Source: Gemmatimonadota bacterium (GTDB lineage: Bacteria; 4572-55; J002). From it: a DNA stretch of 19,349 nucleotides. The notes beneath the pieces are model-generated. The model was given only the letters and a program-made list of their open reading frames with translations. It was not told where the DNA came from and did no database searches. The position numbers and the translations under genes are program-made. Shown here in pieces: positions 1-19,349 of the stretch; the stretch's first letter is position 1; each line of letters begins with the position of its first letter. The stretch is from positions 1 through 19,349 of the forward strand of contig RFFQ01000070.1 of the NCBI GenBank assembly GCA_003697105.1. Direction: 5' to 3'.

Positions 1-768
1 ATTCAGTTTTGTGATGGGGCATTGGATGATTGCCCGTTGTTCTCACAGGAAAGCGGGTTTCTGGGTGCGATCCAACAGGTGAGAGAACAGCTTGAGGTCT
101 ATTTCTGTAATTTATATTTACATAATTTTAGAACACTTTATGCGCGCTACGCCGCCGGCGACCTTGCCCGTGCCCTTGACTTTGACCTTGACCTTGCCCT
201 TGACCTTGACCGTGACCTTGCCCTTGCCCGTGACCTTGCCCTTGCCCGTGACCTTGCCCTTGCCCGTGCCCTTGACCGTGACCTTGCCCTTGACCTTGCC
301 CTTGCCCGTGCCCGTGCCCGTGCCCGTGCCCTTGCCCTTGACCTTGCCCTTGCCCTTGCCCTTGACCGTGACCTTGACCTTGCCCGTGCCCGTGACCTTG
401 CCCGTGACCTTGCCCTTGCCCGTGCCCGTGCCCTTGACCGTGCCCTTGACCTTGACCTTGCCCTTGACCTTGACCTTGTTAAAAAATTAGAGAACTCTAA
501 CAAATTACGAAAGTCTAAAATGATTAGAATTGTAAAGGAGATTGAGGCTCAATGGACTTCCAGCTTACACGCTATCCTCAAAGCTTATCCAACGTATTTA
601 GAAGGTGATCATCGGCAGTTTATTCAGTTTAGCACTTTGGGGTTGATTTTAATGGGCTTTATTAACTATTTTAGAGCTATTTATGCGGAAAAAGGCATAC
701 AAGACGAGTGGGATTTGGTGGTGTTTGATACGTTTATGGCACATTTTGCAATGAGGAATGAACCATGA
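1..768 (+). CDS. C-terminal part of a large protein with an (L/R)(D/A) dipeptide-repeat tract; possibly NACHT/STAND-type
   Basis: The frame is open from the first base, so the gene starts upstream and only its last 255 codons are here. The stop is TGA at 766-768. A TTG at 22 could be read as a start, but no ribosome binding site supports it and the sequence before it (IQFCDGA) reads on naturally. Three parts are visible: a normal globular segment (about 50 residues, Tyr/Leu-rich), a 106-residue tract built only from D/A alternating with L/R (one Phe), and a C-terminal segment of about 96 residues with amphipathic helices and hydrophobic runs (LGLILMGFINYF). I recall such L/D/R/A tracts in the C-terminal parts of large bacterial NACHT or STAND NTPases, which often act in defence, but no NTPase motif lies in the window. 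That assignment is a guess. The tract would probably form a charged alpha-helix. Confidence 0.7.
   Translation: MQFCDGALDDCPLFSQESGFLGAIQQVREQLEVYFCNLYLHNFRTLYARYAAGDLARALDFDLDLALDLDRDLALARDLALARDLALARALDRDLALDLALARARARARALALDLALALALDRDLDLARARDLARDLALARARALDRALDLDLALDLDLVKKLENSNKLRKSKMIRIVKEIEAQWTSSLHAILKAYPTYLEGDHRQFIQFSTLGLILMGFINYFRAIYAEKGIQDEWDLVVFDTFMAHFAMRNEP
160..477 (+). repeat. Hexanucleotide tandem repeat GMCCKT, 53 units, in frame
   Basis: Every 6-base unit from 160 to 477 fits G-A/C-C-C-G/T-T, except one GACTTT unit at 178-183. In the gene's frame each unit gives Asp or Ala (GAC/GCC) followed by Leu or Arg (CTT/CGT). The two variable positions change independently from unit to unit, so neighbouring units are rarely in a simple longer period, although short runs such as GACCTTGCCCTTGCCCGT recur. 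Unit gain or loss changes protein length by two residues and never shifts the frame. Confidence 0.95.
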
Positions 769-10035: not shown

Positions 10036-10093
10036 GTTTGGGAATTAGGGGTTAGGGATCAGGGGGAACGAAAATCGCAACTTCCCAACTCAT
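10032..10093. repeat. Inverted repeat in the convergent gap, with G-quadruplex-type sequence
   Basis: ATGAGTTTGGGAA at 10032-10044 pairs with TTCCCAACTCAT at 10082-10093 except for one extra T, so both genes converging here may end in this stem. Inside it, 10040-10066 has four G-runs (3, 4, 3, 5) with loops of 5, 3 and 4 bases, a canonical G-quadruplex pattern on the plus strand. The minus strand has G-runs of 5, 4, 4 and 3 between 10117 and 10084, with one longer loop. No T-run is present. Confidence 0.6.
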
Positions 10094-10121
10094 AAACTCC
10101 CCAACTCCCCAACCCCCAGCT

Positions 10122-12917
10122 CTACCGTAACAAAATCATTTTTTCGGTTTGTTGAAACCCGTTGGAAACCTCTAACTGGTAAAAATAGACCCCGCTACTT
10201 AATTTCTGCCTGCTTGAATCCATGCCATCCCATTGTACCTGATACACGCCTGCCGGTTGTTCCTCAAAGACCCATGTGCGAACGAGTTGCCCGTGTAGAT
10301 TGTAAATCCGTAGATACACATCACCGGATACGGCTAAATCATACGGGAGCGTAGTTTGAGGATTAAACGGATTGGGGTAATTTCGTCCTAAACGTGTCAT
10401 TAGGGGTACATGAGTTACGGTGTTTTCACGTTGCACATTGACCATTTCCAGCCGGCTGTTGAGTACAAAATAATCCAATGCCCAACCGGATTGAGCGGCA
10501 TTTGCCATCGCCCCAAACTCAAATCGAAAGCGCACTGTTTCATTTTGGTACGCTTCTAACGGGAATATCATGGGTTGCCAATCGAATACACCGGAATAGC
10601 CGGGTTCATTTCCTAAACCCGTAATGGCGGGTTGCGGATAATCCGGATCGGGGTGGAGCAATTGCCAACTTGAACCGCCATCGGTGCTGATGTTGACCTG
10701 CCCGCCATCAGCGACACTGTTTGTTGCCATGTGGTGATAGACTTTCAAATACGGGTTTTCGGAAACACCCAAGGCATATGTTCCGGTTTCCAGCCAATAT
10801 GTACCCGCCTCGTACCCTCCATTTAGACCGGTTGTCCACAAATGGTCGCCGTGATACGCCCGAAGGGTATCGGATATACCCCACATCCACAGGTTTGGCG
10901 TACCACCGGGCATAAATCCGCCATCATCTGCCTCAAAACTAAGGTAGGGGACAAGTGCCGGATGCCATTCGGTGATTTGATCGGGTTCCACTTGAATCTC
11001 GGCGGTTTGGGGATCAAACCCTCCGGCTTGGGCTTGGATAGTATGGGAACCAACTGGTACGAATTCGACCCGGTAAAATCCGGTGGAATCCGATTGCGCA
11101 CGATATGCCGGGTTATCCACCAAAAAAACGCCGGTATTTGGCAGGGGCAGATCGAGTTGTCCATCCGTGATTATTCCTTCTATTGTGCCGGTATCAAAGA
11201 GCGGTGTCAGTTGTACATCGAGGTAAAGTGTGTCTCCGATACCCACCGCCAGTTCTTCTAAAATCGCGGGTTGGTATTGGGGGTGGTAAATGTTGAGAAC
11301 ATGTGTACCGGCTGGTAGCCGTATATCAAATTGACCCCGCTCTGTGCTGAAAACGGTATAAATTGAATCTGCAATCGTGAACATCACTCCTTCAATGGCA
11401 ACGCCACTGCGTGCATCCGTGACCGTGCCTTGCACCGAACTGAGCGTGGAAAAGGTGGCTTGGACGGCAGCGTAAGCATTGATGCACCCCCAGCCGTAAA
11501 GCGTATCTTCGCCGGCTTCGCCGAGATCGAGTGCGGTTTCCATTAAAATTTCTTTCGCTCGCTCGCTGGTAATATCTGGGTTCACCTGTCGCATTAGTGC
11601 CAGCGTTCCGGAGGCCAACGCTACGGAAATGGAGGTGCCCGTGCCGGTACTATAGCCATCATTGGCGTCCAGAGTACGCACATCCACGCCGGGTGCCGTC
11701 ACTTCGGGCTTGATCCGTAGGGGGAATTCTTCCGTGCAGAGACTATACCCCCCGCCACTACCGATCCAGGTGATATTACCACTACCACGTATCCAAATTG
11801 TCAGATTACTGTCCACCGCGCCAACTGCAAAGCTATTCGTTGGGGTGGTCGCGCGATCGGCTGGGCTTTTGAGGCGGTAACTCCACGACGAAGGGGCATT
11901 TCCAGAAGCATACGTTAAAATCACGCCTGCCGCTTCGCAATTATCCATTGCTTCCCAATATGCGTCGTAACAAAAATCGTAATAGCCGCCGGGCCACTGG
12001 GCATGTACTCCCCACGAATTATTGACCACATCCGGTACATCCTCGATAGTTGCCGGATTGCTGTCGGGGTCAGCAAACCACTGGTATGTGGCGATGATCT
12101 CATCATCCCAATCACCGGTCATCCAACCGGGATGGCTGATGGTATTGGCGGCAATCCAGAGGGCATCAATGGCAACCCCGACGGTGTCGCTTTCCGTGAC
12201 GCCGAGGATGTTGCCGGTGGTGCGTGTTCCATGATATGATCCCCACGGTTGGGGCACTTCGGAGGGGGCTGAGCGCCAATCAAGCCAGCATTCCTCTGCA
12301 GGGGCGAAATTCCCCCGCCAACTGGCTGTCAGGGCGTCATGATTCAGATCAACACCGGTATCGAAACTACCGACCAGTGTACCACGTCCGGTAATACCCC
12401 GCTCCCAACACTGGCGCACATTAATGAGGTCTAATGCGGGGTCGAGTTCGCGCAGATGGGCGGATGGGGTGTGGTCTATTCCAATTGGTTCGACCGGGAT
12501 ACGAGGATAAATCCGTTTAATATCAGGGTGATCTACCAGATCGAGTAGCGCCTCCGGCAGGGCGAGGACACTGATCGCGTTGGTGATCCAGTAAGATCGA
12601 TACCCATCAACTAAACCGGCGGCTTTTTTGGCTTCCAAATGGGTAATTAGATCGCGTTGGGTACGCTCTGCCAAGTGCTGGCACGCTTCGATCACTCGCT
12701 GGTGGCGTTCCTGCCGGGTGGCGGTGCGGAGTTCTTCATGGAGTTGATCCAGATCGACTTGATCATTTAAAACGATGAGTGTGGGAAGTGCTGCCGGCTC
12801 CTCTTGCGCTTGAATTTGATCGCGTAAAATCGGGTGCAAATCCCCCGCGTAACTTGATGAAAAACGGGTGAGAATCATCAACCACACCAAAGCATAACCG
12901 AGAGCTTTACGTTTCAT
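10122..12917 (-). CDS. Secreted subtilisin-like serine protease (peptidase S8) with C-terminal sorting domain
   Basis: The 931-residue protein begins with a signal peptide (basic KRK, hydrophobic core, cleavage near SYA-GD, residue 25). A propeptide-like region (about 26-150) precedes the S8 catalytic domain (about 170-485), with Asp186 in SFDTGVD, His229 in YHGTRTTG, oxyanion Asn340 in ASGN and Ser429 in GTGTSIS. The His motif reads HGTRTTG instead of the common HGTHTAG, but the catalytic His is kept. Two carboxypeptidase-regulatory-like beta modules follow (about 495-575 and 578-655), then a jelly-roll-like region with DGGSSWQ. The last 85 residues form a FlgD-like / type IX-style sorting domain (YPNPFNPQTTLPYDL, LRIYNLHGQLV, SGVYFYQL). 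It is therefore probably exported across the outer membrane. ATG at 12917 has CAGGAG in front. It is divergent from the MmgE/PrpD gene. Confidence 0.95.
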   Translation of the reverse strand: MKRKALGYALVWLMILTRFSSSYAGDLHPILRDQIQAQEEPAALPTLIVLNDQVDLDQLHEELRTATRQERHQRVIEACQHLAERTQRDLITHLEAKKAAGLVDGYRSYWITNAISVLALPEALLDLVDHPDIKRIYPRIPVEPIGIDHTPSAHLRELDPALDLINVRQCWERGITGRGTLVGSFDTGVDLNHDALTASWRGNFAPAEECWLDWRSAPSEVPQPWGSYHGTRTTGNILGVTESDTVGVAIDALWIAANTISHPGWMTGDWDDEIIATYQWFADPDSNPATIEDVPDVVNNSWGVHAQWPGGYYDFCYDAYWEAMDNCEAAGVILTYASGNAPSSWSYRLKSPADRATTPTNSFAVGAVDSNLTIWIRGSGNITWIGSGGGYSLCTEEFPLRIKPEVTAPGVDVRTLDANDGYSTGTGTSISVALASGTLALMRQVNPDITSERAKEILMETALDLGEAGEDTLYGWGCINAYAAVQATFSTLSSVQGTVTDARSGVAIEGVMFTIADSIYTVFSTERGQFDIRLPAGTHVLNIYHPQYQPAILEELAVGIGDTLYLDVQLTPLFDTGTIEGIITDGQLDLPLPNTGVFLVDNPAYRAQSDSTGFYRVEFVPVGSHTIQAQAGGFDPQTAEIQVEPDQITEWHPALVPYLSFEADDGGFMPGGTPNLWMWGISDTLRAYHGDHLWTTGLNGGYEAGTYWLETGTYALGVSENPYLKVYHHMATNSVADGGQVNISTDGGSSWQLLHPDPDYPQPAITGLGNEPGYSGVFDWQPMIFPLEAYQNETVRFRFEFGAMANAAQSGWALDYFVLNSRLEMVNVQRENTVTHVPLMTRLGRNYPNPFNPQTTLPYDLAVSGDVYLRIYNLHGQLVRTWVFEEQPAGVYQVQWDGMDSSRQKLSSGVYFYQLEVSNGFQQTEKMILLR

Positions 12918-14825: not shown

Positions 14826-17800
14826 ATGTCGAATCGGGTAATTCTAACGCTTTTCGCGTCTCTTTTGTTGGTGATTGGTTTTGTCTCATCGGCGCTGGCG
14901 GTCAATGTAAGCATCGTCGGTGAGCAAGATGAGAGCACCATTGAAGCCAGCATCAATCAGCGGTTTGCGATCAATGTTAAAATTGATCTGGAAGGTGCGA
15001 GCCTTACCAATGGGGTGGGTGCTTTTGAGTTCAAAGTGCAGTATGATGCAGACCTTTTAAGCATTGAAAATACGGATGTGCTCTTAGGCACTGTTGCTGG
15101 GGGGGAGACCTCCTATCTTGCCGCCGAAGGGCGTATTCCGACACACGGGTATGAATATGATGATGATGGTGAGCCGGCAACGTTGGATTCGCTGATTGCA
15201 ATTACGGTGGAAGGAAGTTCTGGAGAATTGGTGTTTGCCTGTGCGACTCTCCCTCAAGAAGGTAATGAAGCCGATACCACCAACGGTACTAAAGTTGATG
15301 GGTATTTAGCTCAACTATGGTTTACCGCTCTGGATACAACGGCTACCGGCGATTCTTCGCTGGTTGATTTGGTGGCAGATGATTTAATTTTGGTCGATCC
15401 GGCAGCGAATCGTTTGGAAGAGGTCGAAGGGGTGACCATCACCACCACCGATGGGTATGTGAAAGTTAAAGGTACACGGACCATTGAAATTCCGTTAACT
15501 TCTGGCTGGAATTTAATTTCTTTCAATGTGTTACCGGATGATCAGTCGGTGGAAGCGGTGATGGCAAATGTGTTGGATGATGTGATGTTAATCACCACTC
15601 CCGGGGATGGTTTTGGTCGTGGATTCTGGCGTCCAAATTTCCCGTTTTCCAGCTTATCATTTATGGACCCGAGCATTGGATATTGGGTACAGATGAGCCA
15701 AGCAAATACTCTTGAGATTACTGGAGCGCCGGTAGCCCCAACATCGCGCACCATTTCGCTCTCTTCCGGCTGGAATCTGGTGTCCTATTTACCGGAAACC
15801 GCATATTCTGTGGAAGAAGCGTTGGCTTCTATTTTGTCTTCAGTTCAATTAGTCACGACTCCTGGTGATGGTTTTGGTCGTGGATTCTGGCGTCCGAATT
15901 TTCCGTTTTCTTCCCTGAGTGAAATGGCGGAGGGCATTGGATATTGGGTGCAAACGGATGCAAATGTAGAATTGACGTATCCGGCAAATTCTTCGGGTAG
16001 CCGAATTTTAGCCGCGAATTCTACACCACAACTCCACCGATCCGAACGGCGTGTTTCTGTCACAAAAGCGGTCACTGTCCCCACTTCTTCCGTATTACCC
16101 GCCTCTTCAAAATCACTTTATGCTTCTAAAGATATGAAATCCGTGAGTGTTATCGAACGGAATTTTAGTGAGCGGGAGGGTTCTGTGCTTCGTGAAGGAG
16201 AGCGGGATTTACCTCCGGGTTGGAACGCACCTGTTATTCAAACGGCTTATGCGTTGGTTACCTGCGCGAATGCCACCATCAACGGTGACCCCATTGCGGT
16301 GGGTGACTGGGTTGGTGCCTACAAAATGGAAGGGGATAACATTGTTTTTGCGGGTGCTTATCAGATCGAATTTGAAGGTGGCTTTGGCTTTAATATTTAT
16401 GGACCTCCGTATGAATCGGGTGAGGAAATCCTCTTCAAAGTTTATGATACCAGCGCTGGTGTGGAATATGAAGGGTTTGCTCTGGATAGCGAAGGCAATG
16501 TGACTACGGCTATCTGGCAAAACTTGTTTGAACCGCCTTTTGAAACGGTTGATTTAGAAGGTTTTCGGAATGCTGCTCCGGCAGTCCACATCGATAATGA
16601 GTCTGACGGTAATGATAATTTAATCCTTGATTTTGGTCAGATTCCTTTATCGGGTAATGGCTCGGTATCGTTTGACATCTCCAACACCGGTGATGATGGA
16701 ACGTTGCTCACAGGTACCCTTGCGACGACCACCCCACCGGCAAATGCGGATGTTCTCATTTCACCGGATGCTTTCACGGATATTCCGACAGATGGTACGA
16801 CCGAGACGATCACCGTGACGGTTGACCCGACGGAAAGCGCTCAAGATGGTGAGTCGTTCAGTGCTACAATTACGATTAGCAGCAATGGTGGCGATCAAAA
16901 CATCACGTTGTCAGGTTCTTTTATCGCGAATCCGGTGATTCCGACACCTTCCGTTGACGAGGGGTATGATCTCACGGTTCCTTACCATGGTGACCCTGAG
17001 ATCACTGGGCTGGAATTGGAAAATACATTTAATCAAGCGGTAACGTATAGCATTACAACGGCTTCTGCCCGTGCAGAGCGCATTATTGGCGCCTCTAAAT
17101 CCGCGGTAGACCGCACCTTGAACCGCACGAAATCCGCAATTACGGAACCACTTCAGGTAACCGTTCAAAAAGATGTTCAGGGTAATATCCGCTCGGTTGA
17201 AACTGAACCGGTGGCTGTAGGCAATACCCGGGTTAAAGTAGACGTGACCACAACCTCTCAACGTATCGCGATGGGTAATGTGTCCCGTGGCGGTGACCTT
17301 CGTGAAGATAATGTTACTGTTACAACGAACCCAACCTCTGGCACCATTGACGCTGGAGCTGTTGAAAACGTTACGGTAACATTTGATGCCTCTACAGCAC
17401 CCATTGGTTCGTATAGCGGCAATATCACGGTTACGGTGGATGGTTTTGGTGATCTAGTTATTCCATGGAATTTAACGGTAGAAGGGGCGATTGTCAGTAT
17501 AACGCCAGTTTCCAACGATTTCGGTGAGCAGGAAATTGGTACTACGTCCCCCAGCGCCGAGTTTGAAATTGCCAACACTGGTAACGTTGCGATTAATTTC
17601 GATGCCGAAACAGGTGAACATTTTACGGTTGGTAATGGCTCCCGGGTCATTAGTGGTACGGTAGAAGCTGGTGGCACAACTTCCGTATTTGTCAGTTTCA
17701 CCCCGGGAGCAGAAGGCGCGCTGAGTGGTGAACTCAATGTGACCCCGAGCGATGCCGTGATTTGGACGAATGGCACCGACATTATTTCAGGACTTACCGC

Positions 17801-19349
17801 TGATCTAACCGGTACCGGTATTTCGATTGGTCGTTTGAGTGTAGCAGAAACAAATGTTGATTTTGGTGATGCCGACATTGATGATGAAATGCCACAACAA
17901 GCGATCACGGTCTCCAACGATGGCGGTACCGGCACTATTTTAATTACGGGCTTAAATTTTGGTGGAGATAATGCCGCCGATTTCATGGGTCCGAATCCAT
18001 TTGAAGCATTTGAACTGGCGCCAGATGCCAGTGAAACCATCACTTTAACTTTCGACCCCAGTGCCTTAGGCGAACGTTCTGCAACCGTAATGGTCAATGC
18101 AGAGATTACTGGTGAAACCGATCAAATCGAGCTTCCGACAACCCCAGTCAACCTGACTGGTGTCGGTGTGAAAGAAGATATTAGTGCTAATTCGTTAGCC
18201 ATTGACTTTGATCGCGTTCGTGCCGGTGAAACCGCCATGCAAACCGTCACGTTGACCAATGATGGTACAGATGAGTTAATTGTGAACGATATTGTTATTG
18301 CCGGAGAAAGTTTTACCCGCAGTGATGTCCGTGAAAATGCACCGTCCAGTACGCGCCGTGCCGGAAATGGTAGCTCCGTGATGGCAACTCGTGGTGAATC
18401 CACTAAAATTGCTACGCTTCGGGACGATAACTTCCCGTACACGGTTTTGCCCGGGGGTTCTCTGGAATTTGATGTCACGTTTGCCCCGACCGATGAAGCT
18501 ACTTATAACGGTACCGTAACGGTTACCAGTAGTGACCCGGATGAATCTCCTTTGGAAGTGACACTTACCGGTCAAGGCTTCTTGTGCCCTGGATTTTTGT
18601 TGACAGGTGTGGATGTTGATGGTTCTGTTACTGTTGGTGAACGCGTTTTGGTTGGAATGTCGGGTAGTAATACAATAACCGTTACCAATTTTGTTACCGA
18701 TCCGGATGTTGCGGGTAACTTGTTGGTAGATGTCCAACTCAGTGACAATGAGGATGGCTTATTTGGGTACCAAGTTGACTGGGGTGAATCCGGTATTGCT
18801 CCGAATGCCAGCGGAACCATTACCGTAACGTATACGCCAACCGCCTATGGTATGTCGAACGCAACATTAAACATTAGCATTTTGGGAGCGGGAGAATGTG
18901 GTCTAACCGACCCAGACCCGATTACCTTGATTGGTTCCGGGGTTGCGGCTGAAGCTGTCGTGAAAGTGTTAGATAACAACATGGCAGAACTTGCCAGTTA
19001 CGATAATATTGGGGATTTAACCGCTATTGATTTTGGTATTGTGCCGTTTGGTAGCTCGGCGATGCGTACGTTACGTTTTATGAATACGGATGGAGATGCA
19101 AATACCTACATCAGTACACTGAGTATGATGGTCTCTCTGACCGATGATGATGGCGAATTCTCCATGAGTGATACTACTGGGATTAGCATGATCGGCGCGG
19201 GAGAATCGTTTGATGTGACCATTACGTTTGCTCCAGATAGTACGGGCGGGGCTTTGCCAGGTATTCGGGATGCCCAATTTGATGGTACCACGAATGACCC
19301 AGATGAACCAACCATTAGCGTTGCGATTACCGGTGACGGTCAATATCGA
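14826..19349 (+). CDS. Giant secreted/surface multidomain protein with cohesin-like, SGWN-repeat and HYDIN-type domains (partial, 3' end missing)
   Basis: The frame is open for 1508 codons to the end of the window. ATG at 14826 follows AAGGAGGAG. Residues 1-25 are a signal peptide ending in ALA. About 26-217 resemble a cohesin-like beta-sandwich (FEFKVQYDADLLSI, LWFTALDTTATGDSSL). Two copies of a roughly 88-residue SGWNL module follow (about 219-306 and 309-388). A basic Ser/Arg-rich linker (388-463) leads to a domain with NGDPIAVGDWVGAY (about 464-585). From about 590 onward come Ig-like domains, at least four of them of ASPM-SPD-2-HYDIN / choice-of-anchor D type, starting near 890, 1000, 1118 and 1378, with typical VDFGD, NDFGEQEIGT, FDVTFAPTDEATYNGTVTV and TGQG motifs. 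A Cys-containing domain starts at 1254. The composition is acidic and Thr/Gly-rich, as in adhesins. A C-terminal sorting domain is expected beyond the window. Confidence 0.88.
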   Translation, partial: MSNRVILTLFASLLLVIGFVSSALAVNVSIVGEQDESTIEASINQRFAINVKIDLEGASLTNGVGAFEFKVQYDADLLSIENTDVLLGTVAGGETSYLAAEGRIPTHGYEYDDDGEPATLDSLIAITVEGSSGELVFACATLPQEGNEADTTNGTKVDGYLAQLWFTALDTTATGDSSLVDLVADDLILVDPAANRLEEVEGVTITTTDGYVKVKGTRTIEIPLTSGWNLISFNVLPDDQSVEAVMANVLDDVMLITTPGDGFGRGFWRPNFPFSSLSFMDPSIGYWVQMSQANTLEITGAPVAPTSRTISLSSGWNLVSYLPETAYSVEEALASILSSVQLVTTPGDGFGRGFWRPNFPFSSLSEMAEGIGYWVQTDANVELTYPANSSGSRILAANSTPQLHRSERRVSVTKAVTVPTSSVLPASSKSLYASKDMKSVSVIERNFSEREGSVLREGERDLPPGWNAPVIQTAYALVTCANATINGDPIAVGDWVGAYKMEGDNIVFAGAYQIEFEGGFGFNIYGPPYESGEEILFKVYDTSAGVEYEGFALDSEGNVTTAIWQNLFEPPFETVDLEGFRNAAPAVHIDNESDGNDNLILDFGQIPLSGNGSVSFDISNTGDDGTLLTGTLATTTPPANADVLISPDAFTDIPTDGTTETITVTVDPTESAQDGESFSATITISSNGGDQNITLSGSFIANPVIPTPSVDEGYDLTVPYHGDPEITGLELENTFNQAVTYSITTASARAERIIGASKSAVDRTLNRTKSAITEPLQVTVQKDVQGNIRSVETEPVAVGNTRVKVDVTTTSQRIAMGNVSRGGDLREDNVTVTTNPTSGTIDAGAVENVTVTFDASTAPIGSYSGNITVTVDGFGDLVIPWNLTVEGAIVSITPVSNDFGEQEIGTTSPSAEFEIANTGNVAINFDAETGEHFTVGNGSRVISGTVEAGGTTSVFVSFTPGAEGALSGELNVTPSDAVIWTNGTDIISGLTADLTGTGISIGRLSVAETNVDFGDADIDDEMPQQAITVSNDGGTGTILITGLNFGGDNAADFMGPNPFEAFELAPDASETITLTFDPSALGERSATVMVNAEITGETDQIELPTTPVNLTGVGVKEDISANSLAIDFDRVRAGETAMQTVTLTNDGTDELIVNDIVIAGESFTRSDVRENAPSSTRRAGNGSSVMATRGESTKIATLRDDNFPYTVLPGGSLEFDVTFAPTDEATYNGTVTVTSSDPDESPLEVTLTGQGFLCPGFLLTGVDVDGSVTVGERVLVGMSGSNTITVTNFVTDPDVAGNLLVDVQLSDNEDGLFGYQVDWGESGIAPNASGTITVTYTPTAYGMSNATLNISILGAGECGLTDPDPITLIGSGVAAEAVVKVLDNNMAELASYDNIGDLTAIDFGIVPFGSSAMRTLRFMNTDGDANTYISTLSMMVSLTDDDGEFSMSDTTGISMIGAGESFDVTITFAPDSTGGALPGIRDAQFDGTTNDPDEPTISVAITGDGQYR
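15606..15895 (+). repeat. Direct repeat inside the giant gene (29 bases identical, 261 bases apart)
   Basis: Bases 15606-15634 are identical to 15867-15895 and encode DGFGRGFWRP in both SGWNL modules. Similarity continues beyond this core (NFPFSSLS, then IGYWVQ) with mostly silent changes. The offset equals 87 codons. This fits a module duplication that is recent or kept alike by conversion. Confidence 0.9.

What the first reader, a model, noticed from the sequence alone, without database searches (positions are those of the whole stretch)
160..477. Length-variable, frame-neutral hexanucleotide tract encoding an (L/R)(D/A) helix
Seen: 53 consecutive units of GMCCKT with only one off-pattern unit, using just four codons apart from that TTT. 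Units vary at two positions only, so every expansion stays in frame and every unit adds one charge-or-hydrophobic choice. Inference: the tract may change length by slippage or recombination and act as a variable-length charged helix or spacer, a way to vary a protein without on/off switching. If the gene is a STAND-type immune protein, this could tune sensing or oligomerisation.
Basis: partly seen in the sequence, partly recalled or inferred. Interest (0 to 1): 0.7.

Follow-up and report, generated by a model that had tools for sequence, protein, structure and literature searches.

The report
Variable hexamer tract encoding helical spacer
Near the end of a truncated bacterial gene lies a 53-unit six-base repeat encoding a probable helical spacer: the amino acids vary in seemingly random order, silent bases never change, and the codons used are those that best stop the message folding on itself; similar tracts occur in bacterial immune-receptor-like (NACHT) genes.

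Summary
In detail: 160-477 is 53 in-frame units, 52 fitting GMCCKT plus one GACTTT. Each unit is Asp or Ala followed by Leu or Arg. Unit order cannot be told from random, and no synonymous change occurs in 106 codons. Ordinary GMCCKT arrays elsewhere are nearly all one repeated unit. The gene is cut at its 5' end by the contig start; no NACHT/STAND domain could be shown for it. Comparable two-residue tracts with frozen pyrimidine third bases occur in cyanobacterial NACHT proteins, between the NACHT part and an NCH2 or other C-terminal domain. Orthologues there carry tracts of different length and age, or an ordinary helical segment. Of all 288 one-codon-per-residue ways to encode the window tract, the observed one gives the least mRNA structure. 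Synonymous changes add structure; the observed A/C and G/T changes hardly do. Best explanation: a young, fast-turnover coding repeat used as a helical spacer, free to vary in charge but confined to a hairpin-free codon set. Length change at this locus was not testable. New variant of a known kind (recently amplified repeats in STAND receptors).

The parts
1..768 (+). 3' part of a protein-coding gene (255 codons, 5' end lost at the contig start)
   Evidence: open frame; window starts at base 1 of contig C138
1..159 (+). segment before the tract, predicted helical, unique in the genome, no family match
160..477 (+). 53-unit GMCCKT tract encoding ([D/A][L/R])n, 106 residues
   Evidence: codon uniformity; RNA structure
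178..183 (+). the single off-pattern unit GACTTT (Asp-Phe)
478..765 (+). C-terminal domain of about 96 residues with a long hydrophobic helix; a tract-less copy (46% identical) stands in contig C97

Best explanation
The tract is a young coding simple-sequence repeat that serves as a helical, charge-patterned spacer between the upstream part of the protein and its C-terminal helical domain. It grew from a hexamer whose coding strand cannot pair with itself. Its units then diversified along the only two-site axis that keeps the strand hairpin-free while changing charge: A/C in GMC (Asp/Ala) and G/T in CKT (Arg/Leu). Changes at the other sites, silent ones above all, create mRNA structure, so they are disfavoured or have had no time to appear. 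Order is scrambled by repeat turnover (short-tract recombination or slippage) and/or by selection for a non-repeating charge pattern. Shown: the tract, random order, frozen silent sites, minimal coding-strand structure, and recurrence of comparable tracts in a variable slot of NACHT proteins. Inferred: helix and spacer role, turnover at this locus, and an immune-receptor context.
For: (1) Of 288 one-codon-per-residue encodings of the same protein the observed one has the least RNA structure (-20.6 kcal/mol; next -29.8; median -126). 32 control segments of other window genes lie at z -3.9 to +2.9 against synonymous recoding, the tract at +15.5. (2) Single synonymous changes add structure (mean -1.8 kcal/mol), the observed A/C and G/T flips hardly any (-0.15), other nonsynonymous ones -0.8. 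(3) The coding strand ranks better than its complement in all nine tracts compared. (4) Cyanobacterial NACHT-NCH2 and NACHT-FGE proteins carry comparable tracts: third base pyrimidine 76-100% against about 45-50% in the rest of the gene, C-ending 70-94% against 8-26%. (5) Between conserved flanks the FGE-linked slot runs from near-pure C3 tract (L440) through decaying tracts (L468, L469, L471) to plain helical sequence (L470, L474). (6) Codon uniformity exceeds gene usage in all 13 tracts (z 4.5-18). (7) AlphaFold2 draws helix (low confidence).
Against: Three of 13 tracts (L347, L382, L358) are mid-range for structure, so hairpin avoidance is not universal. Twelve of the 13 were chosen by a pattern search or for a uniform third base, and L190/L147 were found by searching for the window's own codons, so their ranks are not independent tests. 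One locus at rank 1 of 288 is p about 0.003, found after the fact. No length polymorphism was seen at this locus. The two-residue period is not the usual amphipathic helix pattern, and model confidence is low. Assembly from short reads favours arrays without long repeats (longest internal repeat 41 bp), which may exaggerate the random order.
Confidence: 0.5

Rival explanations
1. Plain replication slippage: a recent neutral expansion of a few founder hexamers, with no selection on codons or order. Silent sites are uniform only because the array is young.
For: Homogeneous GMCCKT arrays are common elsewhere. TRF scores period 18 best and a local 341341343 run is visible in unit code. Some cyanobacterial tracts show clear higher-order repeats (L355). 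The WRAP propeller of Nostoc is explained this way (PMC9218822).
Against: A tandem duplication/deletion plus mutation model gave both random order and zero silent change in 1 of 6,750 runs. It does not predict that the codon set is the least structured of 288.
Confidence: 0.25
2. Diversifying selection on charge: units are homogenised by exchange while selection keeps changing Asp/Ala and Arg/Leu, as in fungal NLR repeats, so dN/dS is very high.
For: Nonsynonymous variety with no synonymous change. Comparable tracts lie in NACHT proteins. Fungal NLR repeats show concerted evolution plus positive selection (PMC4986451).
Against: No orthologues to measure selection; the window protein is not shown to be a receptor. 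Does not by itself explain the choice of codon set.
Confidence: 0.15
3. Polymerase stalling at structured DNA, rather than mRNA folding, decides which repeats can grow; the codon set is a survivor of that filter.
For: With DNA parameters the coding strand ranks 2 of 288 (window), 5 of 288 (L190), 1 of 288 (L147). The title of PMC7441554 reports stalling at structured DNA constraining repeat expansion (not read in full).
Against: The complementary strand is not optimal (ranks 46, 45, 51 of 288). Several cyanobacterial tracts rank worse with DNA than with RNA parameters.
Confidence: 0.2
4. Targeted mutagenesis, such as a diversity-generating retroelement, changes only the two variable sites.
For: Variation is confined to two sites. 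DGR targets include NACHT and FGE-domain proteins (PMC10907252).
Against: DGRs turn template A into any base. Here the M site is only A/C and the K site only G/T, and no second GMCCKT copy exists in the genome.
Confidence: 0.03

Closest known systems
WRAP / WD40 propellers in cyanobacterial STAND NTPases (PMC9218822, citing Dunin-Horkawicz et al. 2014)
   Same: recently amplified repeats, absence of synonymous mutations, fast turnover, STAND-type proteins, proposed innate immunity
   Different: units of about 40 residues forming a propeller; here the unit is 2 residues, order is random, and the STAND part is not shown for this gene
Fungal NACHT-WD/ANK/TPR NLRs (PMC4986451)
   Same: internally conserved repeats with a few variable positions and repeat-number polymorphism
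   Different: long structured repeats (WD, ANK, TPR) with positive selection measured; here a 6-base unit and no population data
Cyanobacterial NACHT-NCH2 proteins (PF05729 + PF22727) with alternating tracts (L346, L347, L355, L382)
   Same: alternating small/acidic and Leu/Arg residues, frozen pyrimidine third bases, placed just before a C-terminal helical domain
   Different: mostly C-ending Leu/Arg codons; NCH2 is absent from the window protein
DGR-diversified sensors (PMC10907252)
   Same: variation focused on nonsynonymous sites of NACHT/FGE proteins
   Different: base spectrum here does not fit adenine mutagenesis; no template copy seen

Membership tests
STAND/NACHT NTPase (NLR-like receptor) | NACHT or other STAND P-loop domain in the same protein | tested here: inconclusive
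   gene truncated at contig start; no Pfam/NCBIfam/PADLOC hit in the remaining 255 aa; own genome has one clear NACHT match, in another complete gene without a tract
NACHT-NCH2 proteins | NCH2 domain (PF22727) after the tract | tested here: not met
   no NCH2 match in the own genome at E 1e-3 or in the C-terminal 96 aa
NACHT-NCH2 proteins | characteristic 'RAFY' segment before the tract | tested here: not met
   HMM of 62 sequences against window residues 1-65: E 0.5, reversed control 0.24
Coding simple-sequence (microsatellite) repeat | in-frame tandem short units | tested here: met
Coding simple-sequence (microsatellite) repeat | copy-number variation between relatives | not testable with these tools
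   no orthologue in the only other genome of the class, no reads
DGR variable region | adenine-to-any-base substitutions against a template copy | tested here: not met
   M only A/C, K only G/T; no second tract copy
DGR variable region | adjacent reverse transcriptase | not tested

The most novel reading that the evidence does not exclude
Long coding repeats in bacterial sensor proteins can grow only in the few codon sets whose coding strand cannot fold on itself. Within such a set a protein segment can scramble its charge pattern freely, so RNA (or coding-strand DNA) folding, not protein function, dictates which hexamer tracts exist and which sites vary.
Probability: 0.3. Interest if true: 0.7.

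Novelty: new variant of a known kind. Interest (0 to 1): 0.55.

Why it matters
If right, it names a simple rule for which repeats may expand inside genes: the coding strand must stay unfolded. It also points to a two-residue, charge-scrambled module that recurs in bacterial NLR-like (NACHT) proteins and in proteins of a mobile element near a TIR gene. Such tracts give a testable system for how spacer length and charge tune sensing or assembly, and for separating mRNA-level from protein-level selection, since silent and amino-acid sites behave in opposite ways.

Tried and rejected
Homologues of the window protein in plasmids and viral contigs: none. GMCCKT tracts in cyanobacteria (386 genomes) and 290 genomes across many phyla: almost only single-unit arrays. 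NCH2 in the own genome: none. Window C-terminus against the FGE-family C-terminus: no alignment. Pre-tract profile against the window: no match. Relatives of L190 in viral contigs and plasmids: none but itself. DGR origin rejected on base spectrum. Random order as proof of a special mutator: not accepted, because non-tandem short-tract conversion was not modelled and assembly favours aperiodic arrays. Fold search was not run because both models have low confidence. Papers describing this tract type: none found in ten keyword searches; the library holds open-licence papers only.

Full report
What is there. The window is a whole 19,349-base contig (C138) of a 4.18 Mb genome whose phylum, as held here, has only two genomes. 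It starts inside a gene on the + strand that ends at 768. Bases 160-477 are 53 hexamers: 18 GACCTT, 17 GCCCTT, 13 GCCCGT, 4 GACCGT, 1 GACTTT. Read in frame they give 106 residues of alternating Asp/Ala and Leu/Arg (one Phe), net charge -6.

Two odd features. First, the order of the units shows no memory: match frequencies at lags 1-12 do not exceed shuffled arrays (lag 13 is nominally p 0.03 among 19 lags tested), the longest repeated string is 6 units (typical of shuffles), and the number of distinct k-mers equals that of shuffles. Second, no third codon position varies. With the codon usage of the window's other genes, uniformity of 0.44 is expected and 1.00 is found (z 16.6). A tandem duplication/deletion model with point mutation gave both features together in 1 of 6,750 runs. 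That model leaves out short non-tandem conversion, and short-read assembly favours arrays without long repeats (longest internal repeat 41 bp), so this is a pointer, not a proof.

Comparison with other tracts. Nearly every hit is one repeated unit, the ordinary product of slippage. The exceptions are two related proteins of one 97.8-kb viral-collection contig (L190, L147; E 2e-13 to each other), each with a mixed (Ala/Asp)(Leu/Arg/...) tract in the same codons; these were found with the window's own codon pattern. A gene with a TIR domain lies near L190.

Tracts in NACHT proteins. Starting from a NACHT protein of the own genome (L011, which has no tract), cyanobacterial plasmid and chromosome proteins with NACHT plus NCH2 were collected. 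In a subset the segment between the NACHT part and NCH2 is an alternating tract (Asp/Ala/Ser/Thr/Asn with Leu/Arg/Ile) whose codons end in C 70-94% of the time against 8-26% in the rest of the same gene. A second architecture, with an FGE-sulfatase domain (PF03781) before the slot and a different C-terminal domain, shows the same tract type (L440, L444/L468). Orthologues with conserved flanks have in the slot a near-pure tract (L440), tracts with decaying third-base bias (L468, L469, L471) or plain helical sequence (L470, L474). This looks like a cycle of birth, decay and replacement of a spacer. The link to the window protein is by analogy: it lacks NCH2, its pre-tract segment does not match, and its C-terminal domain matches only a tract-less copy in contig C97 (46% identity).

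Codon choice and folding. The tract RNA folds far less than any synonymous recoding by gene usage (-20.6 against -116.6 +/- 8.4 kcal/mol, 0 of 60). Of all 288 ways to give each of Ala, Asp, Leu, Arg one codon, the observed GCC/GAC/CTT/CGT is the least structured, although CTT (0.10 of Leu codons) and GAC (0.26 of Asp codons) are not preferred in the neighbouring genes. Thirty-two control segments of other genes sit at z -3.9 to +2.9, the tract at +15.5. Single synonymous changes add on average 1.8 kcal/mol of structure, other nonsynonymous changes 0.8, the observed flips 0.15. So the tract varies along the one direction that leaves its strand unfolded and is frozen where change would fold it. 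The other strand is not optimal (rank 80 of 288 as RNA; 46 of 288 as DNA). As DNA the coding strand ranks 2 of 288, so coding-strand DNA and mRNA cannot be fully separated. Among 12 other tracts the ranks are 3/288 and 9/288 (L190, L147), 6/96 (L346), 22/288 (L359), roughly 6-15% for five others, and mid-range for L347, L382 and L358. These were picked by pattern or by uniform third base, so they illustrate rather than test the rule.

Structure. AlphaFold2 without relatives draws the tract as long helices at pLDDT 55-67 over most of its length, overall mean 48; a model of L190 is also helical and poor. Helix is likely from composition but unproven.

Conclusion. The best account is a young, frame-neutral coding repeat acting as a helical charged spacer, confined to a hairpin-free codon set. 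Turnover at this very locus, the receptor context and the selective force remain inferred. The nearest known cases are recently amplified repeats without synonymous changes in cyanobacterial STAND proteins (PMC9218822) and concertedly evolving repeats in fungal NLRs (PMC4986451).

Noticed in passing
L010 (contig C97) 1486-1815, - strand: A stand-alone copy of the window protein's C-terminal domain without tract, preceded by a promoter-like TTGACA-17-TAAACT.
   Followed up: partly
L011 (contig C55) 129-1661, + strand: The genome's one clear NACHT protein is short (510 aa), near a contig start, with no tract.
   Followed up: partly
L190 4633-5568, + strand: TIR-domain gene near a tract-bearing protein on a 97.8-kb viral-collection contig that also carries a ParA-like gene.
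   Followed up: partly
L499 1301-3653, + strand: Tolypothrix plasmid pair of a caspase-family gene and an EAD10-FGE protein related to the tract-bearing FGE proteins; three plasmid records carry it, two with the same protein accession.
   Followed up: no
L044 and L084 (JAUHXL MAG, bacterium 2_bin.9): Several different hexamer arrays (GACCTT, GCCCTT and others) in neighbouring stretches of one genome, suggesting unusually active repeat expansion.
   Followed up: no
window 14826-19349, + strand: Very large secreted-type protein of repeated domains, cut by the other contig end.
   Followed up: no
window 10078-10122: Short imperfect CAACTCCC tandem repeat between genes.
   Followed up: no
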